This document shows positions 3,013 through 47,160 of a stretch of 64,000 nucleotides of DNA, piece by piece. Origin of the DNA: Jaapia argillacea MUCL 33604 (lineage: Eukaryota; Basidiomycota; Agaricomycetes; Jaapiales; Jaapiaceae); assembly GCA_000697665.1 (NCBI GenBank), contig KL197714.1, positions 1,369,545-1,433,544 on the forward strand. Reading direction: 5' to 3'. The position numbers and the translations under genes were made by a program. A model generated the notes under the pieces. The model saw nothing but the letters and a program-made list of their open reading frames with translations. It had not been told where the DNA came from and did no database searches. Numbering within the stretch: position 1 is the stretch's first letter; each line of letters starts with the position of its first letter.

Positions 3013-3951
3013 CTACAGTTCAAGTTTCAGAGGGACCTACAAATGAATCAGTGGCGGACGTCGGTGATTGAAGGCGAAGAAAAACCACCAACCTCTCCCA
3101 CAAATCTGTCAACACAATAGCTCACCTTCTCCAGGAACACCTCCATGGCGCTGGACATCGTTGATGTGGGGCAGGACGTGCATGGCGTGTAGACGACTCG
3201 AGGGAATGTCTTCACCGTTTCGCCGCATGGTCGAAGCGCTAGGGCAGATTCCAGCCGTGAACGGAACGACGGGAGGGGGGTTTTGCCCACATTTTGGGCA
3301 ACGCGAGCCCTCCCCAGGTTTCCAAAGGGTGCGAAACACTGCGTCGAAGTTTTTAGATATTCGTCCCACGCAAACCTGATGGTAAAATAGGAGTTTCATG
3401 AGATTTTCTGCAGATACCGATGCAAGCTCTGGGGGCAAAACTTCAACGCCACTGGGAAGTAATTCAGCTTCTGACTTCTGAAGTGCGAACTTGGCGGCAT
3501 CCTTTGCGAGGTCATTGACCCCAGCTATGCAAGAGATCGCAAAGACCCTGAGAGGCTCTCGCTCGGCAAAAGCCAGCAACCTCTTCTTTGAGGCTGATGT
3601 GATGAAATCAATTTGATATTTCAACGCAGCAGTCAGTAGTTCTCTGGCATCCTCGATGGATTCCATGACAAGATCCTCTCCAGGGTAGCAGAATCTCAGC
3701 AACATCTCCAACGTCTTTCCATCTTCCACCATCTCAACAACTGCGACAACATCCTTCTCAACCTGAGATCCCGAGCGGGATGATGGTTGGGGTAAGTCGA
3801 ACATATCGTTAAAGATTGGCGAAGAGAGGGATAAGATGTTTTTGAAGGTGGAAAAATCAATGTTATCGGATGAGCGTAAGATGATGTCTGCGCGAGGATG
3901 ATTGAAGGGAGATCTTGCTGGAATGGGAAGGCGATTGGGAGAATCGGTCAT
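3013..3951 (-). CDS. BTB/POZ domain protein 3, frameshifted in this sequence
   Basis: Minus-strand paralogue starting MTDSPNRLPIPARSPF, with the same BTB domain and the conserved CPKC pair. Just after CPKCGQ the family homology jumps by one base into another frame (FRSRLESAL..., then CTSC and the end of exon 1 at 3093). The jump lies in a run of A then C (plus strand about 3275-3292), so it may be a homopolymer sequencing error or a real frameshift. The last exon (3013-3036, after an intron 3037-3092) encodes VPLKLEL, the same as in the intact copies. Divergent from BTB gene 4, 206 bp apart. If the shift is real, the protein ends in an unrelated tail and lacks the second CxxC. Confidence 0.75.
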
Positions 3952-4157
3952 GGCGATACACCGGAGGATGTGAATCGTTGGATGCGGAGAGGATAAGACG
4001 GAAGATGCAAGTGTTCGGTGGAATGGGTGGCGTCGGTGAGTTGTCACGCTATGTAACGACTGGTCACATATCGTGACTCAAAGTAACTGGCCGTGACCTG
4101 GCCACTTCAAATTCGTCGACGTTGGCGCCCGTGGACGCTGTTCGCTATTCCATCTAA

Positions 4158-5070
4158 ATGTCGCAGGATTCTGGCCCTCGATCTCCCCAAAAGCCTTTCA
4201 ATGACCCTCGCGCAGATGTAATTCTTCGTTCATCTGATAACGTCGACTTCAGGACTTTCAAGGCCATCTTATTCTCGTCGTCGTCGATCTTTGACGACAT
4301 GTTCTCCATACCCCAGCCATCCACTGCTCCAGTTGAAGATGTCCCTGTAGTGGAGATGGAGGAGTCTGCTCGTATTCTGGAGCTGTTGCTGAGGTTCTGC
4401 CACCCCGGAGAGAACCCAGAGATGGAAACGTTTGAGGATGCGAGGGACGTTTTAGTGGTGGCGATGAAGTACGAGATGGGATTCGTCGCAAAAGCAGCCC
4501 AAATTCGGTTGTTGGAGCTTGGTCACGATGAACCTGTTCGTGTGTATGCACTCGCGTGTATCCACATGGTTCATGACCTGGCACACGATGCCGCAAGACT
4601 TGCACTTCAGGTACCTGAAGATGACCTCCTCCCCACTGATCATGTTACCCTTCACCCCGAATATTCGAGCGTATCCCTCAAGGCATTTGTGCAACTGGTA
4701 TCCTTCCACCGTCGTTGCAGCGCCAGCCTAGACTTGTTGGTGGATGGGAATTTCAATGGATTGGTTCGCCCTGGGGTGGCGAGCTGCTACAATTGTGGTA
4801 ATCCCCCATTCTGGTGGCAGGAGTTCAAGAAAACGGCCAAACAGAAACTGAAGTCACGGCCGTGTAGCGAGACTATCGACTCCTGGGCATATTTCCCGCT
4901 GTATACATGCACCAGCTGCAAACCGCAGCCGACGGACATGATGAAATATATCGTAAAGTTACGCGAATTTATCAAAGACCGGGTAAACCAAGTGCGTACC
5001 TTTTTTCTTGAGCGATGTTATATCGCGTTGATTGTTGTCCTTGCAGGTTCCTCTTGATATTGATTTTTGA
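4158..5070 (+). CDS. BTB/POZ domain protein 4 with C-terminal double CxxC
   Basis: 285 residues in two exons (4158-4991, 5047-5070; 55-nt intron). The BTB/POZ domain (DPRADVILRSSDNVDF, SSSSIFDDMF, CHPGE) is at residues about 12-110, shorter at the N-terminus than in the siblings. CxxC pairs are CYNC and CTSC. The last exon encodes VPLDIDF, which decides the splice acceptor. Shares a 206-bp divergent promoter region with BTB gene 3. Family known for protein-protein contacts; specific role unknown. Confidence 0.85.
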
Positions 5071-7728: not shown

Positions 7729-7972
7729 ATCGCCCTCGAAGTTTGATACGGTTTCAAGGCGGGAAATCTTGTGCTGGTTTACATTATATGATGTCTGCGA
7801 TGTTGCTCATTCTGTGCGTCGATTTTGTGGAAACGTTCAGAGAACGAAATTATGTAGAATTTCGAAGAGATGGTTACAACTGCGAGCTATGGTGTGCAAA
7901 TCGGATCCCTGAACCGTATTCGGATATTCAACTCCCGAATTCGCGGATGGTATCATTATCCAACAGCTCGGC

Positions 7973-10315
7973 CTACCGTGGGCATGGGTCACTGGAGTGG
8001 GAGGATGAGAACGTTGTCGATATCACGATGGATAGAAGCACTTACCCCCAGTAAAAAGCCTCTGCTCCATCCTGCTGAGGTCTCGCCATCAGAATGTACA
8101 ACGGACCAGTGGAGATCACAGAGATCGTGTCGGGGACAACCAAATCCTGCGATATTGAGAAGATAATCTTCACACCATTTGTCTTCTCGAGAATACAAGC
8201 AATCAACTCTTCAGGGTCGTCCTCGCTCGGTTTAGTGGTAACTGGACGATAAAGGGCGCTAATAGAAGGAAGATGAGGAGCCTTGACCCATGCTACATAG
8301 TGGCTGTCGATATAGAGAGCCAGATCGTCTTTGTATTGCCGCTCGCATCCCATACGCGAGCTGGACCAGAAAGCCTGCTTCGCATTTCAGTAAGGCAGAT
8401 GGGAGAATTGGAAGGAAATTGACCTTATTTTTACCCCGAGAGTTTGGCTGGAGGGGGTCATCGACACAAACACCCTCACATATCGTCGCATACCAGAAAG
8501 TGTGCGGTTTTTCTGAGGCTCGCTTCTTGTACCAGGCTTCAAGGTCGAGTTTGATAGCAAGTGCAGACGCTCGGGCTGATTGATCTCCATTATCGACAAT
8601 CTGGCCGAGGTTGCCAAGTATCTCATCGTAGCAATCGACGTCTTCGTTGGCAACTTGAATTACATCTTCTACCGAACATTCTGAACTGGAATTTGGTGAA
8701 ACATAGTTAGAATGTGAAGGCACAAGGAAGAGCGACGAATACATACTTCACAGCAATGGTGACAAGCTGCCGACAAAGTGATGTCCTGATCTTGGGAGAC
8801 AATCGACGACTCGGTATATCCCACGGCTCAGAAGATATATTGTGGTAGAAATCATGGCGTGCTTCACCTGGCTTGAACATCCATTGTCGAAGGAATGCAC
8901 CCCAAAGAGAAAAGAATGACCCTGCAAACAATTGTACGAGCGATGGCCATTCCAAAATCTCCGTTGTACTCCGACGGTGCGTCTGGGTTAGGGCCATGGA
9001 GCGCTTCGGCAGTTTCGAACGAATCTCTGGGGTAAGTAGCGCGGCGAGATAATTCTTGTTCGGTAATATTCGATTGATAATTCGGCCCGCAGATTCGTCG
9101 ACTGAAAGGGGCAAAAATGAGCTAATGTTGAGTGAGATAGAGTGCCGTCCTTACCGCCAATGGTGTCGAAATATGATTGACATACCGGGACCACATAACA
9201 ATCCCAGAGTCGAGCACAACAGATATCAGAGCACACCGACGCAAATTGCGAGAGGATGCGAGAGTATACGTGGCTGAGAATGGGGTCGTCGCTCTGGGAA
9301 AGCTCGGCCCATTGGTAAACCACTTCAGGTTTTATTGCCTCCAACAATGTGGGGTGGGCGTGAACGATGCGTTCCAGTTTCGAAATCCGGAGGCCTGCGA
9401 GTATCTGATGGTCTGACATCCTAGAAGCCAGTTCATCAGAAGTTCATATGGTCAAAGGTGACTTGGACCCACATTGTGAATTGGATTAAGGTCGCGATAG
9501 ATTCTGCACGATGGTCAGGAAGCAATTCAGGGTCAGAGCGACCTCCGTAATCCAGGCTCTGAATGACAGTAAGGGTCTCGCTCTCTGCTAACGATACAAG
9601 GGCACGTCTTGACGGAGCGAGCAACAAATCCCGATGCGGGTGGCGGCGAGGAAGCGAGAGGAGGCGTTTCTGTCTTCTCTGAAGGATATCGAAGACCCCA
9701 AGATCAATAAAGATGGTCCGAGCGCGAGGATCAGTGTATATGAGGGTTGTGATGTAATACAATGCTAGAAACTGGTTGTTGGGGTTATTATCTCTGCGGG
9801 GAAAAATGAGAACAAGCTGGAGTCAAGAGGAGAGAAACGCACAGCAGATAATCTGCCAGCTTCCGATAATACTCGGGTAGTCGAGCTTGGATTTTGGAGA
9901 CCGACTCTCCAGAACTCATTGGTGATGTGGTCGAATGTGATAACGCGATGGGAATGAGAGACCTGAATGGCCGAGGAGGTCGAAGAAGGGAACGATGGTG
10001 ACGTCCTACGCCGGATAGAACATCTATAATGTCCTCCATAACAGCGTTCGGTCCAATTCGAAGTCGTTCTGCGAAACTTCCCGCAGCTACTTCCAATTTC
10101 TTTCCCGCCCTCCCAATCCACTTTCCGATCGTATATCCAGGACCAGGGTTGTCCGATAGAGTAGACGTGCTCGCCGTTTCGAGCTCAAAAGAATCGCCCG
10201 AATTATGGTTGACGTCCAGCAAGTCGAACAGATCCCTCGCTGGAATCGAAAACGTCTCCTGATTGTACGATTTTCCCTTCCCCTGGTCATTGAATGGATA
10301 TGTGTTGGGAGACAT
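7973..10315 (-). CDS. family X protein, copy 1 (unrecognised, multi-exon)
   Basis: Not a family I recognise. The start is the ATG of MSPNTYPFN, conserved as MSP in copies 2 and 3. Exon 1 carries a polar N-terminus (FSIPARDLFDLLD) and the motif NPGPGYTIGKWIGRAGKKLE. Further exons follow (about 9765 down to 9450, 9419 to 9140, 9080 to 8750, 8690 to 8430, 8370 to 8046) with conserved blocks LLLAPSRRALVSL, SLWGAFLRQWMFKPGEAR, CSVEDVIQVA and PLYILMARPQQDG. The last exon (7973-7991), after an intron 7992-8045, encodes only DPCPR; in copies 2 and 3 it is DPCPW. No membrane segment or catalytic motif was seen, so it is probably soluble. Part of a duplicated unit with AtaL-like genes. Confidence 0.7.
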
Positions 10316-11035
10316 TGGAATGTGATAGAACTATAGGTGTGGGCCAATATGGGTCCTCGATTTGAATGTCGCTCCAGCACAGCTTGATACGAGTCAGCCC
10401 GGCCGCTCAGGTCTACGCTGCGTCATACGCAGCCAAAGCCGCAGCTTGAACCTGGAGGATAGAAGACCAGACATCGCATGTTATCCAAAGGCCTTCATGA
10501 GGGAGATTCGGGTCAGCCTGAATCACATTTTCTTGTCGGAGACTTGACTCGGTGCAAGTGTAGTTCAGAAATGTCGAGCTAGCGCCGAGGATGGGACCTG
10601 GTGACACGTGACCCGAGTGACACGTCAGTAGTGACGAGTGACGGGAGTCCCCTCGTCTCTCATTTGTCAGCTGACACTTCGCCAGCGTCTCTTTCTGTGT
10701 TTTTACGAGTCCTTCATTCCCCCCTCTTCAATCTTGGCCGTTCGATGACAGCTGAGCAGACCTACTGCGACGGACATGTGGATATCCCCTTCCACTTGCT
10801 TTAAAGTTTAACTTTGCTTCGCCACGCTCACAAGTCATCGCTGCGTTTGGTATGTTTCTGATGGATTGTCAGATCGCAGTTGCAGGTGATCATGAAGAAC
10901 GAGGAGAGCATTGTGGAGCACGTTCCTAGTTCTCCTTCGATGGGTACACTTATAAACCTAGCCCACCAAGACCCATCGATTATCCAAACACTCACCAACA
11001 AATATATTCCGCCCCTACCTGCCGACAAAACCACC
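10316..11035. other. divergent intergenic region, duplicated elsewhere
   Basis: 720 bp between the starts of family X copy 1 and a type A AtaL-like gene. Large parts recur at 20493-21692 and, reversed, at 56993-57360 and 60444-60840 (for example the stretch with GACAGCTGAGCAGA and the block with CAGATCGCAGTTGCAGGTGA). The conservation suggests that promoter and gene were duplicated together. Confidence 0.55.
10951..10956 (+). promoter_or_regulatory. TATA box of type A gene at 11036
   Basis: TATAAA 80 bp before the ATG. A TATA-like block sits at nearly the same place in four other type A copies. Confidence 0.6.
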
Positions 11036-11540
11036 ATGGTCAACTATGCTGTATCCGCCACCCGAGTTATCCCCCCACATGTGATGAGAGCCCAAGCTTG
11101 GTCAGCCTTCAAAGATGGTGCTAGGAACCCTGTAGGGTTTGGGGGAATCACTGAGAGTACTATCGTGTCGGAGAACGAAAACGGGACGGAGTTCGTGAGG
11201 AAGTTGGTGAGGATGGGGAAGGAACACACACAGGCGGTGACTCTTTTCGAGCCAACTTGGGTATGTAGTCCATTCCCGATTTCAGCTGTGACGTTCTGAA
11301 TGTTGATTTACTTTTTGTTGGTAGTACAAAGCCAAAGGGCAAGACGATGACTCCGATGTGACCATCATCTTGAGCTCCGATAAGGAGGGTGTCGACTATA
11401 TCACCTTCGCATTCCATTGGATTCACCCTGATGTCGAGGCAGGGTCAGAGCAGGATAAGCAGCTGGCAGTGGTTTACGAGGGGATAGTGAACAATGCTGC
11501 GGACAGTGCTATCAAGGCTGTTGACGACACCAAGGTCTAA
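11036..11540 (+). CDS. AtaL/DUF1857-like protein, type A
   Basis: 146 residues, exons 11036-11260 and 11325-11540 (intron 64 nt, phase 0 after EPTW). Start ATG in a good context (ACCATGG). The whole protein is one START/SRPBCC-like AtaL domain: MVNYAVSATRVIPP opens the first strand, then AQAWSAFKDGARNPVGFGG, ESTIVSENENGTEFVRK, and in exon 2 ILSSDKEGVDYITFAFHWI and the C-terminal helix (EQDKQLAVVYEGIVNNAADS). Such folds hold hydrophobic ligands; no partner enzyme lies next to it. A type B gene follows 294 bp downstream in the same direction, and this A-B pair is repeated at 21.7-23.0 kb. Confidence 0.85.
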
Positions 11541-11765
11541 TGTCGGGTTGGTCACAGGATGCTGAAGAACCAAGTACGATATTTGGTTTGATTGTATTCC
11601 ATTGCAGCACATGTCCACCAGAAATCGAAGCTTAACGGTCCATTTACTGATTGCTAAGACATCAAAACGTGGATGAATCATCATCTCGACGATGTCTTGT
11701 CAGCCACCTGAAATTATGATGACGACGACAATCGGGCTCCAAACAAGCAAGCGAGTGGCGCTCGG

Positions 11766-11771
11766 TATAAA
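11766..11771 (+). promoter_or_regulatory. TATA box of type B gene at 11835
   Basis: TATAAA after CTCGG, 64 bp before the ATG. The same block precedes the type B copies at 22472 and (reversed) 56204. Confidence 0.6.
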
Positions 11772-11834
11772 GGCCTCAGATGAACTATTGTCCTGGTCCT
11801 TCAACAAATCCCATTCCAATCAACGAAACCCACA

Positions 11835-12336
11835 ATGATCAGGACTGCAGCCACTCGCACCGTTTCGCCCAACATCTCGCAAAGCCAACTTTGGGAAGGT
11901 CTCAAAATCAAAGCTCGTAACCCCATCGGTTTCATTGGAGCCTTCAAAGAAAGCACAGTGATTTCTGAGCATGAGAACGGGTTGGTCAGGAGAGCAGTTA
12001 CTACGACGGGGACGGTCACGACGGAGGACATCACTTTTGTCGAGCCCACTTGGGTGAGTATCGCGCTTGGCTATTCACTGTAGATAGGGAACTGAGGATT
12101 CATTTGTCGGGGTGATAAAGGTGCACTTCAAAAGTAGGGAGGATGGCAAAGAAGTGTTTAACATCATCAGTACCGACGAACAGGGCCGGCTCCTCCTCAC
12201 GTACTCGTTCAATAGGACGGAGCCTGGGGTGCAACCTGGGTCAGAAGAAGAGAAGGAGCTAAACAAGAACTGGGTCAAGATCGCCGGGGGTGCCGTGGAA
12301 CAGTCGATTAAGAAAGTCGAGGAGCTGGTGAAATAG
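11835..12336 (+). CDS. AtaL/DUF1857-like protein, type B, 3' end cut by a hAT transposon
   Basis: 144 residues, exons 11835-12053 and 12121-12336 (intron 67 nt). Starts MIRTAATRTVSP, followed by QSQLWEGLKIKARNPIGFIG, an ENGLVRRAVTTTGTVTTED core and, in exon 2, LLLTYSFNRTEPGVQPGSEE and a C-terminal helix. Same START-like fold as type A but a clearly different subfamily. Other type B copies end VEELVKEGKL or VEELIKEGKL. Here the reading frame is interrupted after VEELVK by the transposon, whose first bases TAG are the stop codon. The lost EGKL codons are still present on the other side of the element at about 17301. Loss of four terminal residues may leave the fold intact, but the native 3' UTR and terminator are displaced by 5 kb. 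Confidence 0.85.
12326..12333 (+). repeat. target site duplication, left copy
   Basis: TGGTGAAA immediately before the left end of the hAT element; an identical copy follows the right end. Eight base pairs is the size typical of hAT insertions. Confidence 0.9.
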
Positions 12337-12351
12337 TGTTGGGGAAAAAAC
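12334..12351 (+). repeat. left terminal inverted repeat
   Basis: TAGTGTTGGGGAAAAAAC. It matches the reverse complement of the right end at 17 of 18 positions. Confidence 0.92.
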
Positions 12352-12536
12352 TATTGGGCTGTAAATTACTCGAGTAAATTACCCCCTCCGTGGCGGGACA
12401 GTTGTTTACCGATGTAAATTAGTGTAAATTACTGTTCAGAGGGCGACAGCCCGGTGGTCGATTCTTCATTGAGCAGAGGTAAAAAACCCAGTAAAAAATG
12501 CTGAAGGGCCGGTAAAAAATGGTAAAATTTGAATGA

Positions 12537-15500
12537 CTACGACAACCAGGCACTAAAGTCTCCATCCTCGTCCTCCTCCCCATCACCGACATCCTCTACC
12601 TTGGAATGAGACACCACGGTCTTCAATGCTACCGGTTTCTCTGCTAGAACTCCTAATAGTTCATCAGCATCCAGCGCTAATGCTTCCCCCTCGTCACCGG
12701 ACTCCAGATCAAATTTCTCACTGAGCTCAACATTCGGAGCAGCACCTTCGAGCCAGGAATTCTCGTCGTCATCGTCATCGTCGCTGTCGGCATCGGATTC
12801 TTCGGCATCAGAACTCTCCTCCATCAAGGTGCTGTAAATATTGCAAAATTTAACGACCGGAGTGGGATGGGCGTGGGGTCGTTTCTGACGTTGAACGACT
12901 CGGAGTGAGATGATAGCACAATGAAGTACAGTTTTAACTCGCCTTAGGCTGTGAGCGATACCATTGTCGAACTTGGGCCATCGCAACAATGGTGTCAACC
13001 TTCTGGCGAGAACGGTGAGCCGAATTCATCCAATGAAAGACAGACTGGATCCGTTCATCATCCATAGAGTGCGGAACAATAGAGTACAACTTGATGGCGA
13101 GATTCTAGGTGGGGATGGTCAGCCTCACCAAAGGGTACTCAAAAGAAACGAACACTGACAGCGAGCAGGGAAGCTTCCGGCACATTCTGAATCACTTCCC
13201 ACCAACCAATGACACTACGGCCTTCAATGAGTGGTCTGTCAAAGGGATAGTGTCCTCGAGAATATGTGGTGAATTGTCCTTTGAAGGACTCGCCAAAAGC
13301 CTTTGGTTTATTCTTAAACTGTGTGAAAACGGGGTTCTTACCGTGGCTTATCTCGTTCACAGCAACAGAAATCAAGTAGTCGCCAACTTTNNNNNNNNNN
13401 NNNNNNNNNNNNNNNNNNNNNNNNNNNNNNNNNNNNNNNNNNNNNNNNNNNNNNNNNNNNNNNNNNNNNNNNNNNNNNNNNNNNNNNNNNNNNNNNNNNN
13501 NNNNNNNNNNNNNNNNNNNNNNNNNNNNNNNNNNNNNNNNNNNNNNNNNNNNNNNNNNNNNNNNNNNNNNNNNNNNNNNNNNNNNNNNNNNNNNNNNNNN
13601 NNNNNNNNNNNNNNNNNNNNNNNNNNNNNNNNNNNNNNNNNNNNNNNNNNNNNNNNNNNNNNNNNNNNNNNNNNNNNNNNNNNNNNNNNNNNNNNNNNNN
13701 NNNNNNNNNNNNNNNNNNNNNNNNNNNNNNNNNNNNNNNNNNNNNNNNNNNNNNNNNNNNNNNNNNNNNNNNNNNNNNNNNNNNNNNNNNNNNNNNNNNN
13801 NNNNNNNNNNNNNNNNNNNNNNNNNNNNNNNNNNNNNNNNNNNNNNNNNNNNNNNNNNNNNNNNNNNNNNNNNNNNNNNNNNNNNNNNNNNNNNNNNNNN
13901 NNNNNNNNNNNNNNNNNNNNNNNNNNNNNNNNNNNNNNNNNNNNNNNNNNNNNNNNNNNNNNNNNNNNNNNNNNNNNNNNNNNNNNNNNNNNNNNNNNNN
14001 NNNNNNNNNNNNNNNNNNNNNNNNNNNNNNNNNNNNNNNNNNNNNNNNNNNNNNNNNNNNNNNNNNNNNNNNNNNNNNNNNNNNNNNNNNNNNNNNNNNN
14101 NNNNNNNNNNNNNNNNNNNNNNNNNNNNNNNNNNNNNNNNNNNNNNNNNNNNNNNNNNNNTTCTTACGCTCAGTACGTAGAACTGTCGTGGCAGCTGTTG
14201 ACTTGTTGAAAAACTTGATGACACCTCGCAACTTTGTCTTGACCTAATGAAGCCGGTTAATATAGATCGAGCAACAAGAACTTTCACTTATGTCATTGAA
14301 GAACACAAGAAGGACAATATCTTGGATGGCATTATTGATGAGATGGATTGGGTCAGGCACATTTATAAGGGTCTTCACGGCAAGGCATAGCTCGCGTCGA
14401 GCAACCTGTGTATTCCCCGTATTATCGGATGAGACACTGGCGAAGCGAGCGGTTCCAACGCGTTGCATCACCTGACAAATAAAGCAAAGTCGTGGTGAGG
14501 TCAGGGCAGAGCGGCAGCTACTGGCACTTACATCAAGAAGGAGATCCTTGATCCAAACCCTGGAATGAACGACCCCCATACAATCTTCTCCCTCGAGAAA
14601 AAACTTCCTCCGATCCGTGGTGTTTACCGAGACAGTATAGAAGGCGTATTTCCCCATGGTACTCCCTCCGTCAAAGCCAAGGGTAAGGTTTCGCTCTGTG
14701 GAGAGAATCTTGATTTGCTTGGCATGTATGTGTTCACGCTCACGAGTAATATGGACGTCAACGAGGGTTGTCCTTGAAACAGGGTTGTAGTTGCTGTTGG
14801 CCACAGCGAGGATATTCTTGAACTCTTCAAGGTCGACAACATGAGGGGGGATACCACAAACACAGACAAACTTCATGATTGCAAAGTCAAGTTTTGTTTG
14901 AAGGTCAATGTGGCCCTGCGTTTTGAAAGTATCAAATGCATGAGATGTGGGCGTAGTGTCGAGTTCCTCAACCGCCGTTGATGGATCAGGTGGAGGGGCA
15001 ATTGCGACAGTAGAATCGGTTCTCGCCATCCGTGCTCCTAGCGACTGTCCAGCACTTCTCACTGATATCACCTTCCTCACTGCTGACTTTAGACCACAAC
15101 AGAGAGTAGCGTGGGCAAAAATGCGAGCACTATTACGATTCGACCATGTTTTCGTACACTTCATTCCCACACAGCGATACGTGAACTTGGCTGGATCATT
15201 CGTTGGAACAGTGACTGTGATGTCATCGAGGAGGGTGATACGGGGTCGACCAATGGATTTGGTGTGAGGTCGATTAGATGTGTTGTCACCACTGCTCTCC
15301 GAGTCATTATCTTCATCAGAGGCACTAATTGAAGCCTACAAGTCTCGTTAGAAATTTCAGAAGATAAGAAAGATTTGGAGACTCACCAAAGTCTGGTTCT
15401 TGGTAGTGAGACCTGAAAACGATGCGTGAAGTGATGGTTGTTTCATGGAACTCTGCGGCTTTGACTTTCGCCCTTTCGAAGTCAAGGTCTTTGCCTTTGA

Positions 15501-17034
15501 AGGTTTCAAGGGCCCTAAAGTTTTGACCTTCTTCTTCTTCGGGCTGCGAGGGATGCTGGGGCTTGCCGGTGTGTCTGGCTCCATCGCAGGAGTTCTCTCA
15601 GTTGTGGGTGATGCCACATCCTCGTGGGGACGCTTCGGTGCGGATGGTTGCTTGGTGGTCAGAGTGAGGTCGGCGAGCAAGATAGGCAGGTCTGTCGTTG
15701 ACGGAGGGAAAGCCAGTTGCGTATCGTCAGGTGACTTGGTGCTGCTGAGGAGTGCCATGCGTTCATAGAATTGTTTCGTCTGTACAGTATATTTCAGATC
15801 TCTCATACACATAAATTTAATGGGTAAACTCACCTGGATGCATCGTAGGACTCGCCGAAACATGGCCATCCTCCCAAAGTCACATGATGTCTCAGTGGAA
15901 TCAAGCAAACTGTACTGGCTGGGTAAAAAGTAGACAGCGAGGGCGTTGAACGCAAGCAATCCACACGAAAATGAATCGCGCTGTTTCGCCACCCCAAGCT
16001 CTGATAACGAGAACTCGCCTGAAACATGTTGGGCAAGCCACCACATTAACGCCGCAACGATGGTCGAGTCCGGTGGTGCTCCGAACGAATCGCCATATAG
16101 CACGTTCCGCTTCGTAACCTCGACAACAACTGCCACCCAGTGGTTCCCCCCAACCAAAAAGACCCCTGCAATGACCTCAAGCCCACCAATGCTGAGGCTG
16201 GTGCCGATCTTCCAAAGGTAGTTCTCCACTGAATAAGGGGTTTCCTCCAAGCGCCGGTATGTGTCTCGTAGTCTCTTGGTGGTGTAGGTTGTGAGGAGGA
16301 GGTGATTTTGTGGGAGGTAGGGGGATGAATCGGAGATTTCGTGGTCGAGTACGGAGATGAGTTCATTCACATGAATATCATTAAACCAATCCTGGCTGAA
16401 GTAATGGGCTAACGAGACATTCCTCCCCTGATCTGCATTCAAACCCAACTCCCCCTCTCAAGCGAAAGACTGAAGATAGTACTCCGTCTGGTCGTACTCA
16501 ACTCGTCGAACAGCTTGAGGGGCCACCCTCGTTTTCTTGAACCATGTCCAAGCACGCTGCCATTCTCAGTGCGTGCCTCGCAAGCAGTGGAGGCGCTCCC
16601 AGTACGTGAGCACCCAAACGGGAAGCACCTCGGGCTCCATGGAGGGCCCGGTGAGAGAAATCGAATTGTCCATTTAGCCATGCTTGGCTGTGTGATGCAA
16701 GAAGCCGGTGTATATCGTCCAGGGGAGGTACGGTAACCTGGAGGAGCTTCTCAGGTGTGGGATCCGGATCCGGTGCATCGCCTGAGGAGAATGACAGGTC
16801 GAGTGCTTTTGGTGAGTTGATTAGTTCTTCAGGTGTGAAAGGGGGAAGTTTCCGATTAACGAAGTCCACAACAGATATGTCCTGCTTTGGAAGGAGGGTA
16901 GGAAGGAGAAGTACGGGGATAGCGAGTGCCTCGAGGAAGAAATCTTCGGTGATCGGAGGGACATCCCTCAATGTCAGAGTGAGATCCTCGGCTTTCCTGA
17001 AGCCTTGCTCGTCGTCTGCACGAATGTCGCCCAT
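12537..17034 (-). CDS. Ulp1-like protease / BED finger / hAT transposase, apparently one spliced gene
   Basis: Reading on the minus strand from MGDIRADDEQG. (1) An N-terminal region to about 16650, then after a frame change a segment with LPVWVLTYWERLH and two in-frame TGA (16566-16568, 16458-16460) where the family probably has tryptophan. (2) A Ulp1/C48 cysteine protease at about 16448-15790, with GNHWVAV (His), YGDSFG (Asp), KQRDSFSCG (Gln and Cys). (3) A basic Ser/Pro-rich linker with KKKKVK. (4) Across an intron at 15336-15385 in the same frame, an acidic stretch, GRPRITLL and a BED-like finger (C..C near 15165, then H..C). (5) DUF659 (GFDGGSTMG, SSDNTGNTQVARR, PIHLINNAIQD). (6) The gap. 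(7) A hAT dimerisation region (PFDRPLIEGRSVIGWWEV, then PHSMDDERIQSVFHWMNS) and an acidic tail, after introns including a probable GC-AG one. Transposases cut and paste the element in the nucleus; Ulp1 enzymes cleave SUMO-like conjugates. Confidence 0.75.
13391..14160. other. assembly gap of 770 N
   Basis: Undetermined bases inside the transposase gene. The expected catalytic glutamate region of the hAT core would lie here. Long frames that seem to span the gap are artefacts. Confidence 0.99.
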
Positions 17035-17278
17035 GAGGAGGTGGAGGGGGGAATTGAAGAAATCTCATTTACAATCCATTTTTGCTCGCTCCTGCCCTCA
17101 AATTTGATTTGCGCTGACGGTCCCGCCGCCCAAGACATCGCTCGCTGAAGGGCGGCTGAGGGCCTGACCTACACAGGTTTCTTTACCATTCTTTACCCCC
17201 TCCCGTGGTCGTCCCGGTAAACAAGGGTAATTTACTAGTAATTTACTCTATAATTTACCCTCGGTAATTTACCTATGG

Positions 17279-17296
17279 GTTTTTTCCTCAACACTA
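17279..17296 (-). repeat. right terminal inverted repeat
   Basis: Reads TAGTGTTGAGGAAAAAAC on the minus strand; one mismatch to the left end. Confidence 0.92.
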
Positions 17297-17304
17297 TGGT
17301 GAAA
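17297..17304 (+). repeat. target site duplication, right copy
   Basis: TGGTGAAA directly after the right end of the element, identical to 12326-12333. Confidence 0.9.
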
Positions 17305-21614: not shown

Positions 21615-21692
21615 ACCTGGCCCACCAAGACCTATCGATCATCCAAACACTCACCAGCAAATCTATTCGCCTCTACTTCCTACAAAACCACC

Positions 21693-22196
21693 ATGGTCAA
21701 CTACGCTGTATCCGCCACCCGAGTTATCCCCCCACGTGTGACGAGAGCCCAAGCATGGTCAGCCCTCAAAGATGGCGCTAAGAACCCTGTAGGGTTTGGG
21801 GGAATCACTGAGAGCACTATCGTGTCGGAGAACGAAAACGGGACGGAGTTCGTTAGGAAGTTCGTGAGGATGGGGAAGGAACACACACAGGCGGTAACTC
21901 TTTTCGAGCCAACTTGGGTATGTAGTCCGTTCCCGATTTCAGCTGTGACGTTCTAAACGTTGATCTTCTTTTGTTGGTAGTACAAAGCCAAAGGGCAAGA
22001 CCCTGACTCCGAGGTGACCATCATCTTGAGTTCCGATAAGGAGGGTGTCAACTACATCACCTTCACATTCCATTGGATTCACCCTGATGTCGAGGCAGGG
22101 TCAGAGCAGGATAAGCAGATGGCAGCGCAGTATGAAGGGATAGTTAACAATGCTGCGGACAGTGCTATCAAGGCTGTTGACGATATCAAGGCCTAA
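21693..22196 (+). CDS. AtaL/DUF1857-like protein, type A
   Basis: 146 residues, exons 21693-21917 and 21981-22196 (63-nt intron). Nearly identical to the copy at 11036, with only scattered differences such as RVTRAQAWSALKDGAK in the first helix. The intron is also conserved. One START-like domain over the whole length; expected to be a small cytosolic ligand-binding protein. Followed at 276 bp by a type B gene, which reproduces the pair at 11.0-12.3 kb and points to a recent duplication. Confidence 0.85.
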
Positions 22197-22395
22197 TCTC
22201 GGGTTGGTCATAGAATGTCGAGGAACCAAGTACGATGTGGGTTTGATTGTACTCCATTGTAGCACATGTCCACCAGGAAATCGAAGCTTAGCGGTCTCAT
22301 TTACTGACTTGCTAAGACATCGAATCATCACCTCGACGCAGCCACCTGAATTACAATGACGACGACAATCGGGTTCTAAACAAACAAGCGCTCGG

Positions 22396-22401
22396 TATAA
22401 A
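22396..22401 (+). promoter_or_regulatory. TATA box of type B gene at 22472
   Basis: TATAAA after CTCGG, 71 bp before the family start codon. Confidence 0.6.
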
Positions 22402-22471
22402 GACTTCAGATGATCGATGAACTATCGTCCTGGTGCTTCGCCAAATCTCATTGCAATCAACGAAACCTACA

Positions 22472-22990
22472 ATGATCACGACTGCAGCCACTCGCACCGT
22501 TTCGCCCAAATCTCACAAAGCCAACTTTGGGAAGCTCTCAAAATCAAAGCTCGTAAACCCATCGGCTTCATTGGAGCCTTCAAAGAATGCACAGGGATTT
22601 CTGAGTATGAGAACGGGTTGGTCAGGAGAGCAGTCACTACGACGGGCACCGTCACGACAGAGGACGTCACTTTTGTCGAGCCTACCTGGGTGAGTATCGC
22701 GCTCGGCTATCCACTGTAGATAGGGAACTGAGGATTTATTTGTCGGGGTGATGGAGGTGCACTTTAAAAGTAGGGGGGATGGCAAAGAAGTGTTTAACGT
22801 CATCAGCCTGAGTACCGACGAACAGGGTCGGCTCCTCCTCACGTACTCGTTCAATAGGACGGAGCCTGGGGTGCAACCTGGGTCAGAAGAAGAGAAGGAG
22901 CTAAGCAGGAACTGGGTCAAGATCGCCGGGGGTGCCGTGGAACAGTCGATCAAGAAAGTCGAGGAGCTGGTGAAGGAAGGCAAGTTGTAG
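22472..22990 (+). CDS. AtaL/DUF1857-like protein, type B, with a 1-nt frameshift near the start
   Basis: Start ATG of MITTAATRTVSP as in its relatives. A base is missing near 22508, where CCCAACATC has become CCCAAATC; exon 1 is 218 nt instead of 219. After that the domain is intact in the next frame (QSQLWEALKIKARKPIGFIG to EPTW) and exon 2 (22757-22990) ends VEELVKEGKL. An upstream ATG at 22417 would give an open product with a foreign N-terminus. Either a young pseudogene or a base-call error. It serves as the undisturbed reference for the transposon insertion in the copy at 11835. Confidence 0.7.
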
Positions 22991-23413
22991 CTTGTAGGTT
23001 CAACTGAGGTTTTCAGCGGTTTTGGAAGAGAGGACAAACGGGGGTCACGATGGAATGATGAACCACGCATGTTTGGCTGGATAGTTTAGCATTGATCATA
23101 ACTTCTGAGAGATTGGGCCTGTCGAGCTCGACGATCGGCGAAACGGCGGTTAGGTGGATACTGTTTCGAGCTGGGCAATCTTGTGCTCTTGTATGTCTAC
23201 GAAATCTGCAACGGCGTTTGTTCTGTTGAGGCATCCGTCGAAGATTGAAATCACGTAGAAAAGATGGTTACAACGGCGAAATCTGATTGAGTATCGGAAC
23301 TTGGCAAATGCACATACATCCCCATCCCCGAACCTCCATGGGATATTCCACCATATTCGATGCCATTCGGGAGTGTTGATACATTCCGGATGGTATCATT
23401 ATCCAACAGTACC
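22991..23413. other. convergent spacer, duplicated
   Basis: 3' flank shared with 17316-17540 at its left end and with the flank of family X copy 2 at its right end. No gene seen. Confidence 0.5.
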
Positions 23414-25756
23414 CTACCATGGGCAAGGGTCGCTGGGGCGAAAGCTGAGAACGCTGTCGAAATCACGACTGAGAGAAGCACTTACCCCCAGTAATATGCC
23501 TGTGTTCCATCCTGCTGAGGTCTCGCCATCAAAACGTACAGCGGACCGGCTGAGATCGCAGAGATTACGTCGGGGACAACTAAATCCTGCGCTAGGGAGA
23601 AGATGATCTTCGAACCCCGAGTCTTCTCGAGAATACATGCAATCAGCTCCTCGGGTTCGTCCTCGCTCGGTTTAGTCGTAACAGGGCGATAGAGGGAGCT
23701 GATAGAAGGAACATGAGAAGCCTTGACCCATCCTACATAGTGGCTGTCGATATAGAGTGCCAGATCGTCTTCGTACTGCCGCTCGTACCCCATACGCGAG
23801 CTGGACCAGAAAACCTGCCGCATATTCAGTGAGGTAAATGCGAGGATTCGAGTGGAATTAAATTGACCTTCTTTTTGCCTCGAGAGTTTGGCTGGAGGGG
23901 GTCATCGATGCAAATACCCTCACATATCGTCGCATACCAGAAGGTGTGCGGTTTTTTGAAGGCTCGCTTCTTGTACCAGGCTTCAAGGCTGAGTTTGATA
24001 GCAAGTGCAGACGCTCGGCTTGATTGATCTCCATTATCGACAATCATGCCGAGGATGCCAAGTATCTCATCGTAGCAATCGACGTCTTCGTCGGCCACTT
24101 GAATTACATCTTCGACCGAACATTCTGAACTGAAATTCGGTGAAACCTAGTTAGAATGTGAATGCACAAGGAAGAGTGACGAATACATACTTCACAGCAA
24201 TGGTGACAAGCTGCCGACAAAGTGATGTCCTGATCTTGGGAGGCAATCGACGACTCGGCATATCCCACGGCTCAGAAGATATATTGTGGTAGAAATCATG
24301 GCGTGCTTCGCCCGGCTTGAACATCCATTGTCGAAGGAAAGCACCCCAAAGAGAAAAGAATGATCCTGCAAATAATTCTACGAGCGATGGCCATTCCAAA
24401 TTCCTTGTTGTACTACGATGTTGAATCTGGGTTGGGGCCACGGAGTGCTTCGGCAGCTTCGAACGGATCTCTGGGGTAAGTAGTGCGGCGAGATAGTTCT
24501 TGTTCGGTAAGATTCGATTGATGATTCGGTCCGCAGATTCGCCGGCTGGAAGAGGGGGAAATGAGCTGATGTTCAGCCAGATAGAGTGCCGTCCTTACTA
24601 CCAACAGTGTCGAAATATGATTGACACACCGGGACCACATAGCAATCCCAGAGTTGAGCACCACAGATATCAGAGCACACCGACGCAAATTGTGAGAGGA
24701 TGCGAGAGTATATGTGGCTGAGAATAGGATCGTCGCTCTGGGAAAGCTCGGCCCATTGATAAACAACTTCAGGCTTTATAGCATCCAACAAAGTGGGGTG
24801 GGCGTGAACGATCCGTTCCAGGTTCGAAATCCGGAGACCTGCGAGGATCTGATGTTCTGACACCCTAGAAGCCGGTACATAAAAAAGCTCATGCGGGGGG
24901 AGAAGGTTCGGACCCACGTTGTGAATTGAATCAAGGAAGCAATAGAATTTGCACGATGGTCAGGAAGCAATCCAGGGCCAGTGCGACCTCCACAGTCCAG
25001 GCTCTGGATGACTGTGAGGATCTCGCTTTCTGACAACGATACAAGTGCGCGTCTTGACGGGGCGAGCAATAAATCCCGCTGTGGGTGACGGCGAGGTAGA
25101 GAGAGTAATTGATCTTGTTGCTTTTCAAGGATGTCGAAGACGCCAAGGTCAAGAAAGATGGACCGGGCCCGAGGATCGGCACATATGATGGTTGTGATGT
25201 AATACAATGCTAGAAACTGGTTGTTGGGGTTATTGTCTCTGCGGGAAAAATCAGAACAAAATGGAGTCGACTGGAAAGTAACGCACAGGAGATAATCTAC
25301 CAGCTTCCGATAATACGTGGGTAGTCGAGCTTGGATTTTGGAGACCGACTCTCCGGAACTCGCTGATGTGGTGGAATGTGATAGCGCGATGGGAATGAGA
25401 GACCTGAATGGCCGAGGAGCTTGAAGAAGGGAACGATGGTGGCGTTCTGCACCAGATAGACCATCAATAATATCCTCCATAACAGCATTCGGTCCAATCC
25501 GAAGTCGTTCTGCAACACTTCCCGCAGCTATTTCCAACTTCTTGCCCGCCTTCCCAATCCACTTTCCGATCGTATACCCAGGCCCAGGGTTGTCCGAGAG
25601 AGTAGACGTGCTCGCCGTTTCGAGCTCAAAACAATCGTCCGGATCGCGGTTGGCATTCAGCAAGTTGAACACGTCCCTCGCTGGAATCGAAAACATCGGC
25701 TCATCGTATGTCTTGCCCTTCTCCTGGCCATTGTGTGGGTGCCTGTGGGGAGACAT
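23414..25756 (-). CDS. family X protein, copy 3 (unrecognised, multi-exon)
   Basis: Start ATG of MSPHRHPHNGQEKG (the frame is open 33 codons upstream, but siblings begin here). Exon 1 25287-25756 has NPGPGYTIGKWIGKAGKKLE. The first intron (25239-25286, 48 nt) is in frame and free of stops, so retention is possible. Later exons give ICADPRARSIFLDLGVFDIL, LLLAPSRRALVSL, EHQILAGLRISNLERIVH, SLWGAFLRQWMFKPGEAR, DEDVDCYDEILG and RPQQDGTQAYYWG, and the last (23414-23432) DPCPW. Very close to copy 2. No known domain; the absence of a signal peptide suggests a cytosolic or nuclear protein. Unlike copies 1 and 2, no AtaL-like pair lies upstream of it. Confidence 0.7.
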
Positions 25757-38393: not shown

Positions 38394-41300
38394 TCAGTCT
38401 GCATGATGGTGCGGTGTATCGGCCACCGAATCGTCAAACTCTGTCTGTTCCGGTTCTCCCAAGGAATGGGTATCCAGTGAATCGTTCTTTTCTCGTGTAT
38501 CGTGTGTGTTGAATGTCAGCGTGCTGTACATTCGGTGGGCAACGAGCTGGGGAAAAAATATCTCACGTCAGCATCGACACATGGTAAATCGGGCAGAGAA
38601 TACTTACACCGGCGCTGATGGGTCTGGCGTAGTCCACTTCGTCTCTTAAACTTGCGGCACTCGACCCTTGTACTCGCAATATACTATGCGGGAGGTTAAG
38701 TAGACTCTCCTCCTCAGCTGCCGGAGAAGGAAGCGGCGGCAAGGTTAGAAGAGGGTTGTTTCGAGGCCACTCCTCGATCTCTGCGGAAGAAGGCGAAAGA
38801 TGACCTTCCTCTCTGGCGAGAGATTGAAGTGTGGGAGAGTGATGAGGAGCGAAATTAGAATGGCCAGGACGATGCATTCCACGAGACACGGGTGGAGAAG
38901 TCAACTTTGGAGACTTCGGTCGTCGGACTCTCGAGAACAGCGGTGATGCTGGCGGTCGAGTAGGTTTCGGAAGAGCAGGTGTTACGAACTCGCGAGGAGG
39001 CTCGAAGAAAGTCGTTACGTTCGAGTACGAGCTTCGGGTGGTGCGGGTACCAGAATGTTGACCTTCTACTCCTTCGTCGGAGAACAGCTGAGAAGCTGAA
39101 GCCTTACTGCCCCGACGACGCCAGGGAACACTTTTAGAGAGGAAACCTCTGGTACTGGTCGGACTTGCGCTCCCACTTCGCTCTCCAGAAGCACCCTCGA
39201 CGTCCTTTGCCTTACCCTTACCCTTCCCCTTGGCATCACTACTTCCACCACTACCAGTACCAGTACCGTTCGCCCCACTACCACTACCGCTACCGCTCTG
39301 ACCGCTAACATTCCCGCCACTACTACTCCCATTCCCGCCACTTTCAGGTCCAGCGGCGCTTTGATACATGAAGCTAATGGGAGGAATGTTCCCACCCAAT
39401 ACTCCACTGGGACCAGCGCCTCGAGAACCATGCGACTGAGATGAAGACGCGTAGCCCCCGGCGGCACTGAGATGACCATGTCCACTACTACTTGACCGTT
39501 CCTGCGAAGAACCCGATCGTCCAACAACAACAAGTCCATGTCCAGTCGAGGAGGGTCCAGCGTGTCCGATTGAAGAACTCGTCCTCGCAAACACGTTCGG
39601 CATCAACTCGTCTCCACTTCCTCCACTTGGGATCAAGATATGCTCCTCACTCGAGACTAACCCAGTGGCATACGCATCATGCCCATGCCCGCTCACCGAC
39701 TCCGGCGCTTCATGACCATGCCAACTGGGTACCAAGCCTGGCGAGGCTGGCGCCACAGGGAGATAACTCACTCCCGCGCCAACGGGGGCACCCGCGCTCG
39801 ACCCAGGTCTTGACCCGTTACCACCATAAGCGATCCCACCTAACCAATAACCCGGATCCAACCCCGATATACTGCTCCTCCTCCTTCCGCTCCCAGTGGT
39901 CTTCGTCGGAGAAACGGGGGGACTGATTCCATAGTCTACCCCACTCTCGTGAGCACCACCGAGTCCCAATCCGGCACCTCCCATAACCTCCACAACCTGT
40001 CCAAATCCAACCCCAGAACTCGTCCGTCGATGTCTACCACGGCCATTCCCATCACTCATCAAAGCACTCGACGAGTTCCGGCCCATGGCGACTTCCTCTT
40101 CCGTGGGCAACGGAGGCAAAGGCGGTAAGGGAGGATCATGTCCACTGGCGACACCAGCACCTTCGCCGTCTCCACCTCTCATTCTGTTCGCAACTCCTCC
40201 ATATCCTCCATATCCAGGACCGAGGGAGACAGGTATCGGCAAAGCGCCCATCATCTCAGGTCCATGATCATCTTCATCTTCATCCAAAGGTCCTCGAGCG
40301 AGTGATGTCCCATCGCCAAATTCCAAAGCGGTTGCCTCCAATCGACGGCGTTTATGTCCTCTCCAAACGAATATTGCCCATGCGGTGAGAAGGCCAACAG
40401 CAAAAGTGACGCCAACCACAAGACCCGCAATCGCTCCTGCGTGATGCGACAGGCTAAAAAGAAAAGGGTGTTAGTCAAAGCACAGTTGGGAAGCAAGATA
40501 ACCTGCCGATTGCTTGCCCCGTTGGGACTGTTCGGTACCAAACTTCCACTTGGCACAACAGTCATGACGGTCGTCATACCTCCTCCGGGTATTGTAGTCG
40601 TGTACCATGTGGTAACATCGATGGTGGTGGTGTAGTATCCAGCCGTTGCTGATGATATGGTAGTCGAGAATTCCCGTGCAGAAGAAAAAGATACGGAGGA
40701 ATGAGATGTTGTCGTCGTACCAGCAGATCGGATGGTCGCTGTAGGTGTATCGCTAAAGCTAAACCAACATCAGTTGAAATGGGAGTCAAAAAAGTACACA
40801 GACGCGACGAACCTGGTTATTGAACTCTCCGCCGATGAGCTAGAACCACTCGTCGTTCCGGGTGCGCTGCCACTACTGGGGGGAGGAGCAGAGACGCTCT
40901 GAGAGTCAGTGGATGTCGATGGACCAGATGAAGAAGGAATTGAAGAGATTGAAGACACAGAAGAAGAGGAACCAGTGGAAGAAAGGCTGAACGAGGAAGT
41001 AGTGCCCGAAATAGAATTTGATATGGGACTTGAAGTGAATGAAGTGGAAGTTTCCGTTGAAGAAGGCGGAGGTAAAGAAGGACTTGACATTGAAGTGGAG
41101 GATGAATTGGATGCACGAGTTGAAGAAGAAGAGGAAGTGGGGGAGGTAGGAGGCGGGGACTGCGAAGTGGTGGGGGTGGATGAATGTGTAGAAGAGGAAG
41201 ACGTGGGAGGTGGGGAGGAAGATGTGAGAGGTGAAGGGGAAGATACGGGAGGTGAAGAGGAAGACGCGGGAGGCGAAGAAGAAGATGCGGGAGGCGAAGT

Positions 41301-43934: not shown

Positions 43935-45160
43935 GCGAAAGGAATAGAAGTCGAACCAGCGACAGGAGAATATAGAAGATATGAAAGCAATGTACAGACC
44001 AGCCGGTGAACACGCAGTTGTTCCAACATTCCAATCAATCGATTTTTGACAATCGTGGGAGACGAAGCCAACATAATCAAGAGTGAGGCAATTTTCAGGT
44101 ACAGGGACGCAATACCAAAGTGTTTGAAATCTGTCAGCGCCCGTTACACAGACTCAAGATCAAAACAAGGGACGTACCGACTTGGCTGGACCAACAGCCA
44201 CAATCTGACCCAAGAACGTTCCTCCTGGTGTCTACGAGGTTGAGCCTGGCGACGAGACGGTTTGATTATTTCCTCCCGACTTTCGTTTTTGAACGAGCCA
44301 TGGATTTTGGACGTGGCGTGATTCCGTCGATGGTGGAGAACGGTAGTACACGATTGCAGTTCTAGTAGTGGAGACGTGGCTGTGTAGTCTATGCATCGGC
44401 TTGGGGGATAGTTGAGTCGAGTGGGCGAACCCGGGGGCTGCGGCAACAAGCCGTGATTCACATTGTGAATACGGGGAATGTGAAGGTGATATCGTATCTC
44501 CATTAGACCCAATTGAGGCAGAATGAAATACCACCACCTCCAGGCGCGGTGAGGCGGTAGAGTGGATTGGGATGAACACGAGTCCGGATTTGACGTTTCT
44601 CCATTGGAAGTTTGGGACGAAGAGGAGGATACGAGCTCATCCGTGTTGTTGTTGGTAGGTATCAAAGGAGTGGAGATGATGATGGGATCAGAAAGAGAGT
44701 GATTCGACTGTGTATGTCGAGTTGGTGCCATGGTGATATTATTGAATTGGATATACGATCTGTCTTGGAAAAGATTCGGTCGATTGACAGGCGCTGTCAA
44801 AAGTCTAAAGTCGTGTGCGATGATGTTCGTGGTATGCTGGATGGCAAGAAAACTTGGAACGAGAAAGAGAAAGAGACGCTGTTGAAGCTACATAAGTATC
44901 GAAAAGAAGTAGGTGAGTTTAGTGCCAAAATGATTGGAGAGGGCGGTTGAACTATGAAATAAACTCTTACCGCATTGCACCACGCCTGTATGCAATTCGC
45001 TTGCACAGATCCACCACGTTTCCAGCGATTTGACTTTGGGCGGGGAGATACACAGGACCGGAGAGTCGGAGACGGAGTGAAACAACTGAACTGCTCCTCG
45101 CCGATGGGGCTTTTGGGAACTGGGTTTTTTTGAACCAGCTCCACTGCGCCGCCTTTTGCC
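43935..45160. other. intergenic region with a doubtful minus-strand frame
   Basis: A frame at 44144-44731 (from MAPTRHTQSNHSLSDP) has a Ser/Asn-rich start and a tryptophan-rich middle (HRAWRWWYF) but no homology I can see. It might be a small gene. The remainder holds the promoter of the mucin-like gene. Confidence 0.25.
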
Positions 45161-46800: not shown

Positions 46801-47160
46801 GTGTTAGCATTGGCAGTAATTACCTTCTAGTACTATAGTGCCTATGGACGGCATACATCGCTATCCGCCCATTCAAAGCCATTCAGCTGGGCGTCCTGCC
46901 TCACAAGTGGACGATCACTAGTCACTTATACTATGTCTCTCGGCATACCGCGACCGAGGACTTGAAGGATTAACCCACTTTTATATCAGCCGTAAAGATC
47001 AGGCCTTCCGCGCTGCGTGGTCGGTGATCAGCGAATCGTGAAAATAGGCTAAACGACAACAGACCTAGATAAGCATGATAACCCATCGCCAACTTTCTCT
47101 CCCCATTGAACCTCCATCTTCATACATCCCCCCTGAGATACGTCCTACAACTTTCCCAAA

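What the first reader, a model, noticed from the sequence alone, without database searches (positions are those of the whole stretch)
12537..17034. hAT transposon that appears to encode a protease-transposase fusion
Seen in the sequence: the minus strand holds a Ulp1/C48-like domain (His in GNHWVAV, Asp in YGDSFG, Gln and Cys in KQRDSFSCG), and its frame runs across a 50-nt GT-AG intron (15336-15385) without a stop into an acidic stretch, a BED-like finger, DUF659 and a hAT dimerisation region, all inside one pair of inverted ends. Known: Ulp1 domains have been captured by several transposon groups, usually as separate genes. Inference: here protease and transposase are one polypeptide, which could remove SUMO from host chromatin proteins at the target or process the fusion itself. 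I do not know of a described hAT family with this layout.
Basis: partly seen in the sequence, partly recalled or inferred. Interest (0 to 1): 0.88.

Follow-up and report, generated by a model that had tools for sequence, protein, structure and literature searches.

The report
Fungal jumping gene with fused protease
A hAT-type jumping gene in what looks like a fungal genome seems to carry a SUMO-protease-like domain in the same protein as its transposase; such fusions are known in other transposon groups, this arrangement looks like a new variant of them, and the one copy seen here is probably damaged.

Summary
The observation largely holds. A 4,963-bp hAT-like element lies at 12334-17296, with 18-bp inverted ends (one mismatch), an identical 8-bp target duplication (TGGTGAAA) and two empty sites in paralogous copies of the gene it hit. 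On the minus strand it holds a Peptidase_C48 (Ulp1) domain with all four catalytic residues (Pfam E 2.3e-7), then DUF659 (5.8e-6) and a hAT dimerisation region (8.6e-4); these two fall below Pfam's cut-offs and reach these values only in spliced exons. The intron joining protease and transposase is 51 nt (15336-15386, not 50), with strong splice signals. The transposase exon has no ATG before its finger; the upstream ATGs found able to feed it are all in the protease frame. One polypeptide is therefore the best reading, but no transcript was seen. Against an active copy: only weak introns could join exon 1 to the protease or bridge 14.29 kb, and 770 bases are missing. No relative was found, but no searched collection is of fungal genomes. 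Transposase-Ulp1 fusions are known (Ginger1, CACTA-ULP), and cotton gene models carry C48 after hAT domains. New variant of a known kind.

The parts
12334..17296 (-). whole element, 4963 bp, coding strand minus
   Evidence: TIRs, TSD and two empty paralogous sites
12334..12351 (+). terminal inverted repeat TAGTGTTGGGGAAAAAAC
   Evidence: 17 of 18 bases match the other end
17279..17296 (-). terminal inverted repeat TAGTGTTGAGGAAAAAAC (read on minus)
12326..12333 (.). target site duplication TGGTGAAA
   Evidence: the corresponding octamer is single in the paralogous empty sites
17297..17304 (.). target site duplication TGGTGAAA
16498..17034 (-). exon 1, 178 aa plus stop, no Pfam match at E up to 1; open frame (15 of 3000 shuffles as open)
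16457..16526 (-). change of frame between exon 1 and the protease frame, with TGA at 16458-16460; 17 in-frame intron candidates, all weak
   Evidence: best score 4.5, none with a branch site
15912..16388 (-). Peptidase_C48 (Ulp1) catalytic domain; His 16140-16142, Asp 16089-16091, Gln 15981-15983, Cys 15963-15965
   Evidence: Pfam PF02902 E 2.3e-7, 31.3 bits, cut-off 20.7; residues in register with yeast Ulp1 1euv_A in a weak match; codon coordinates
15780..15833 (-). probable 54-nt intron GTGAGT...CAG after the C48 core (the frame is open whether or not it is removed)
15387..15779 (-). linker exon, 131 aa, with a PKKKKVK nuclear-signal-like run; no Gly-Gly
15336..15386 (-). 51-nt intron joining protease and transposase: GTGAGT, CTAAC, TAG; holds an in-frame stop if retained
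   Evidence: highest of 6 in-frame candidates; stop
14532..15335 (-). acidic stretch, C-x4-C-x14-H-x3-C finger (15099-15173), first part of DUF659; first likely catalytic Asp 14670-14672
   Evidence: role of the Asp recalled from hAT transposases
14472..14531 (-). 60-nt intron GTAAGT...CAG
   Evidence: removing it raises DUF659 from 12.4 to 26.5 bits; top candidate
14292..14471 (-). second part of DUF659; second likely catalytic Asp 14424-14426
   Evidence: DUF659 E 5.8e-6 over joined exons, sub-threshold; coordinates
14244..14287 (-). change of frame at an exon end; 24 in-frame intron candidates around it, all weak
   Evidence: best score 4.5, none with a branch site
13391..14160 (.). assembly gap, 770 N
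13160..13390 (-). exon after the gap, first part of the dimerisation region
13105..13159 (-). 55-nt intron GTCAGT...TAG
   Evidence: joint top with a 91-nt candidate, 13105-13195
12958..13216 (-). hAT C-terminal dimerisation region across the 13105-13159 intron; likely catalytic Glu 13054-13056
   Evidence: Dimer_Tnp_hAT E 8.6e-4, 19.5 bits against cut-off 21.4; coordinates; role of the Glu recalled
12537..12884 (-). acidic C-terminal tail, joined best by a possible GC-AG intron 12885-12942
22968..22975 (+). unoccupied target octamer (TGGTGAAG, one difference) in a paralogous gene copy

Best explanation
It is an autonomous-type hAT cut-and-paste DNA transposon, present here as one probably damaged copy, whose transposase gene has gained an N-terminal Ulp1/C48 cysteine-protease domain. 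Shown: the ends, the 8-bp duplication, empty sites, the C48 domain with its catalytic residues, DUF659 and dimerisation signatures in order on one strand, and an in-frame canonical intron between the halves. Inferred: that the transcript is spliced into one protein. Most likely working, inferred: the transposase part binds and moves the element ends while the tethered protease removes SUMO, or a related modifier, from the transposase or from host proteins at the ends or target, easing silencing or repair. Retention of the 15336-15386 intron would instead end the protein after the protease, so one gene could give both forms.
For: TIR, TSD and empty sites. C48 E 2.3e-7, above cut-off, catalytic residues in register with Ulp1 1euv_A. 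DUF659 and Dimer_Tnp_hAT in joined exons. Intron 15336-15386 has GTGAGT, CTAAC 12 nt from the end and TAG, the best of 6 candidates; comparably strong intron-like signals occur 30 times on both strands of the window and on average 6.5 times (range 1-13, 20 simulations) on one simulated 64-kb strand, so one in the right place and phase is unlikely by chance (my estimate, under 1%). No in-frame ATG in the transposase exon before residue 58, inside the finger; the 7 ATGs between 16000 and 15390 that can splice into it by a GT-AG intron are all in the protease frame. Linker open in only 8 of 5000 shuffles (63 of 5000 without the inner intron). No exact 9-bp direct repeats between the linker region and the 5' region that would suggest a nested insertion.
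Against: No transcript, no second copy in the window and no relative (all negative, in collections that are not of fungal genomes). hAT domains are below Pfam cut-offs. Frame changes near 16.5 and 14.29 kb have only weak intron candidates, and with the 770-N gap no complete protein can be read. In-frame internal ATGs (15869 to 15446) could start a separate transposase. Both single-sequence models were too poor to use (mean pLDDT 32.7 and 36.3). SUMO specificity is untested.
Confidence: 0.7

Rival explanations
1. Two proteins from one element: the protease and the transposase are made from separate transcripts or an internal start, as in CryptonS elements with an additional C48 protein, and the open frame between them is incidental.
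For: Seven in-frame Met codons follow the C48 match. If the intron is retained a stop follows the protease. [quoted passage not shown]
Against: The protease frame has no stop of its own before the intron; the transposase exon has no ATG before its finger; the usable upstream ATGs found all lie in the protease frame; the joining intron has canonical signals.
Confidence: 0.17
2. Transduplication or chance capture: a host or transposon Ulp1 fragment was picked up and is decaying; the fusion never worked.
For: Frame change and TGA just upstream of the protease, with weak intron candidates only; plant MULEs and CACTA elements carry ULP sequences, described by the authors as transduplicated (passages of PMC2528002).
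Against: All four catalytic residues are kept and 357 codons are open (0 of 3000 shuffles as open); the frame continues through a long linker into the transposase; exon 1 is also open.
Confidence: 0.1
3. Nested insertion or assembly chimera joining two unrelated elements.
For: The assembly has a 770-N gap inside the element.
Against: The gap lies inside the transposase, not between the domains; ends and target duplication match as one unit; no exact 9-bp direct repeats between 15251-15428 and 16381-17258 (shorter or imperfect ones were not tested); G+C is 0.494 against 0.508 in the rest of the window.
Confidence: 0.03

Closest known systems
hAT superfamily DNA transposons (including fungal hAT7)
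   Same: 8-bp target duplication, short TIRs (the TAGTGTTG start as hAT-like is recalled), DUF659 and Dimer_Tnp_hAT in order; fungal hAT7 families carry an accessory enzyme gene, TET/JBP (abstract, outline and passages of PMC12730594)
   Different: hAT7 has 7-bp duplications, and in the three hAT7 families named in the passage TET/JBP is a gene upstream of the transposase, not a protease fused to it
Ginger1 transposons (PMC2836005, passages)
   Same: Ulp1 domain fused to a cut-and-paste transposase; 8 of the 16 families in the paper's Table 1 list Ulp1
   Different: Gypsy-integrase-like transposase, Ulp1 at the C-terminus, animal hosts in the table
CACTA-ULP and ULP-carrying MULEs of plants (PMC2528002, passages)
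   Same: ULP1 domain inside a DNA transposon; several rice proteins with Tnp2 plus ULP1
   Different: other transposase superfamilies, plants
[quoted passage not shown]
   Same: hAT transposase domains and C48 in one predicted protein
   Different: protease at the C-terminus, found only in Gossypium, treated as Zf-BED genes; no element described in the passages seen
CryptonF/CryptonS with C48 peptidase (PMC3212892, passages)
   Same: C48 peptidase carried by a transposon
   Different: tyrosine recombinase elements, oomycetes; some CryptonS elements encode C48 as an additional protein

Membership tests
hAT superfamily | 8-bp target site duplication | tested here: met
   TGGTGAAA on both sides, single in paralogous empty sites
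hAT superfamily | short terminal inverted repeats | tested here: met
   18 bp, one mismatch
hAT superfamily | DUF659/RNase-H-like transposase core | tested here: inconclusive
   E 5.8e-6 but 26.5 bits against cut-off 34.7, joined exons only; part of the transposase lost in the gap
hAT superfamily | C-terminal dimerisation region | tested here: inconclusive
   E 8.6e-4, 19.5 bits against cut-off 21.4, joined exons
hAT superfamily | D-D-E catalytic triad | tested here: inconclusive
   Asp, Asp, Glu at hAT-like motifs; assignment recalled, no structural alignment
hAT superfamily | BED zinc finger | tested here: inconclusive
   a C-x4-C-x14-H-x3-C finger is present, no Pfam zf-BED match up to E 10
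Peptidase C48 (Ulp1) | catalytic domain by profile | tested here: met
   PF02902, 31.3 bits against cut-off 20.7
Peptidase C48 (Ulp1) | His, Asp, Gln, Cys catalytic residues | tested here: met
   in register with 1euv_A, itself a weak match of E 0.089; coordinates
Peptidase C48 (Ulp1) | cleavage of SUMO | not testable with these tools
   needs an enzyme assay
Ginger1 | Gypsy-integrase-like transposase with C-terminal Ulp1 or OTU | tested here: not met
   no integrase family in the Pfam scans; the protease is N-terminal

The most novel reading that the evidence does not exclude
A fungal hAT lineage in which an N-terminal Ulp1 domain and the transposase are one conserved polypeptide, with retention of one intron releasing a protease-only form, so the element carries its own local SUMO eraser to counter silencing.
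Probability: 0.3. Interest if true: 0.68.

Novelty: new variant of a known kind. Interest (0 to 1): 0.47.

Why it matters
If conserved, it adds hAT to the transposon groups that carry a SUMO-protease domain in the transposase itself and makes the proposed role of such proteases in transposition testable with a single protein. It parallels the capture of TET/JBP by fungal transposons, which PMC12730594 (abstract) suggests helps them escape methylation-based silencing.

Tried and rejected
Looked for relatives with the C48 part in viral contigs, genome contigs and phages, and with the transposase part in viral contigs, genome contigs and plasmids: none found. By their descriptions these collections are of viruses, bacteria, archaea, phages and plasmids, and a single-protein query in the search for related loci reaches close relatives only, so this says nothing about conservation in fungi. 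No further copy of the element in the window. Single-sequence folds of both halves failed (mean pLDDT 32.7 and 36.3), so no fold search was run. The solved-structure search gave 14 weak matches for the protease (E 0.014 to 0.71: Ulp1, SENP1 and other C48-type or bacterial proteases) and for the DUF659 part three chance-level matches, none a transposase. NCBIfam gave one hit far below its cut-off (XopD, E 0.042). A nested insertion is not supported. Self-processing was put low (no Gly-Gly in the linker). Ten paper searches, of which I saw capped listings, and passages of seven papers (PMC12730594, PMC3212892, PMC9296551, PMC2836005, PMC2528002, PMC6710886, PMC5240378) showed no N-terminal Ulp1-hAT fusion; the library is open-licence papers only, and Repbase itself was not searchable.

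Full report
The element. The window holds a 4,963-bp element at 12334-17296. Its ends are TAGTGTTGGGGAAAAAAC and TAGTGTTGAGGAAAAAAC (17 of 18 bases), with subterminal GTAAATTAC repeats, and TGGTGAAA stands directly outside both ends. The flanks joined across the element align in one piece to a paralogous gene copy at 22442-23118 (89.5%, reaching 144 bases past the junction) and to another at 56233-55697 (87.5%, reaching 15 bases past it). The aligned sites hold the target octamer once, as TGGTGAAG (one difference) and TGATAAAG (three differences). This is a clean insertion, and the 8-bp duplication fits hAT.

The protease. The frame 16457-15387 (minus) matches Pfam Peptidase_C48 at E 2.3e-7, 31.3 bits, above the curated cut-off of 20.7. 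Fourteen matches to solved proteases are weak (E 0.014 to 0.71), but the one to yeast Ulp1 (1euv_A, E 0.089) puts His, Asp, Gln and Cys in register. None of 3000 shuffles keeps the 357-codon frame open.

The transposase. Of the 8 unjoined pieces given to Pfam at E up to 1, only the C48 piece matched. Joining the exons across 14472-14531 gives DUF659 at 5.8e-6 (26.5 bits, cut-off 34.7); reading through that intron gives only 12.4 bits (E 0.12), which supports the splice. Joining across 13105-13159 gives Dimer_Tnp_hAT at 8.6e-4 (19.5 bits, cut-off 21.4). Both are sub-threshold but lie in the right order. A C-x4-C-x14-H-x3-C finger lies at 15099-15173; calling it BED is not supported by Pfam. The assembly gap of 770 N removes part of the transposase.

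One protein or two. The joining intron is 15386-15336, 51 nt: GTGAGT donor, CTAAC branch 12 nt from the end, TAG acceptor. It scores highest of six in-frame candidates. Comparably strong signals occur 30 times on both strands of the window, and on average 6.5 times (range 1-13) on one 64-kb strand in 20 order-2 simulations. The transposase exon has its first Met at residue 58, inside the finger. Of the ATGs between 16000 and 15390, the seven that can splice into it by a GT-AG intron all lie in the protease frame; ATGs farther upstream were not examined. The 175-codon linker has no stop in frame, against 8 and 7 in the other two frames, and 8 of 5000 shuffles are as open; without the inner intron it is 63 of 5000 for 157 codons. 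A single polypeptide is the simplest reading. An internal start in the linker, or a protease-only form by intron retention, cannot be excluded without RNA.

State of this copy. Between exon 1 (17034-16498, 178 codons; 15 of 3000 shuffles as open) and the protease frame there is a TGA at 16458-16460 and a change of frame. Seventeen candidate introns would keep the frame, but the best scores 4.5 (the joining intron scores 8.5) and none has a branch site. Around 14287-14244 the frame changes again, with 24 candidates, best 4.5, none with a branch site. The acidic tail joins best by a possible GC-AG intron (6.5, no branch site). The first Met of the protease frame lies after the catalytic His and Asp, so the frame depends on exon 1 or another upstream exon. 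The copy is therefore probably defective, or spliced at weak sites, or the draft sequence has errors; the data do not tell which.

How it may work. Shown by sequence: mobility hallmarks, a C48 domain with its catalytic residues, and a linker with PKKKKVK. Inferred: the transposase carries a modifier-removing enzyme to the element ends or target. The authors of PMC2836005 suggest that Ulp1 and OTU domains may play an active part in transposition, for example through DNA repair (passage). Transposon-encoded TET/JBP in fungi is suggested to help escape methylation-based silencing (abstract of PMC12730594). Self-cleavage after Gly-Gly in the linker is unlikely because the linker has none.

Relation to known systems. 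Ginger1 transposases have C-terminal Ulp1; CACTA-ULP and ULP-carrying MULEs exist in plants; oomycete Cryptons carry C48; and cotton gene models combine hAT domains with a C-terminal C48. I saw passages of these papers, not whole texts. An N-terminal Ulp1 on a hAT transposase was not seen in the listings of ten searches of the held library, which lacks most subscription papers; Repbase was not searchable. The relatives needed to show a conserved family lie outside the collections searched. I rate it a new variant of a known kind.

Noticed in passing
12088-12336 (+): The element sits in the last codons of an AtaL-family gene (PF08982, E 4.5e-14). The first three bases of the element (TAG) now serve as its stop codon, removing only EGKL compared with the paralog near 22970.
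   Followed up: yes
11001-12333, 21660-22974, 57024-55718, 60462-59923, 61849-61365: The region around the AtaL-like gene recurs, whole or in part, at 82-90% identity in both orientations, and the right flank recurs at 23155-24270 and 7940-8826: a duplicated gene cluster.
   Followed up: partly
220-1197, 1640-2632, 3109-4077, 4158-5057, 47137-48081: Five long frames share an FNxPxADxILRSS motif; the first matches the BTB domain (PF00651, E 4.4e-5) and the others were not scanned; a family of BTB-like proteins is likely.
   Followed up: no
40770-44153 (-): An 1127-codon frame dominated by Pro/Ser/Thr repeats (such as PPPTTTSTP).
   Followed up: no
15417-15443 (-): The linker holds KQPSLHASF, which loosely resembles a PCNA-binding (PIP) box; the motif is recalled and was not tested.
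   Followed up: no
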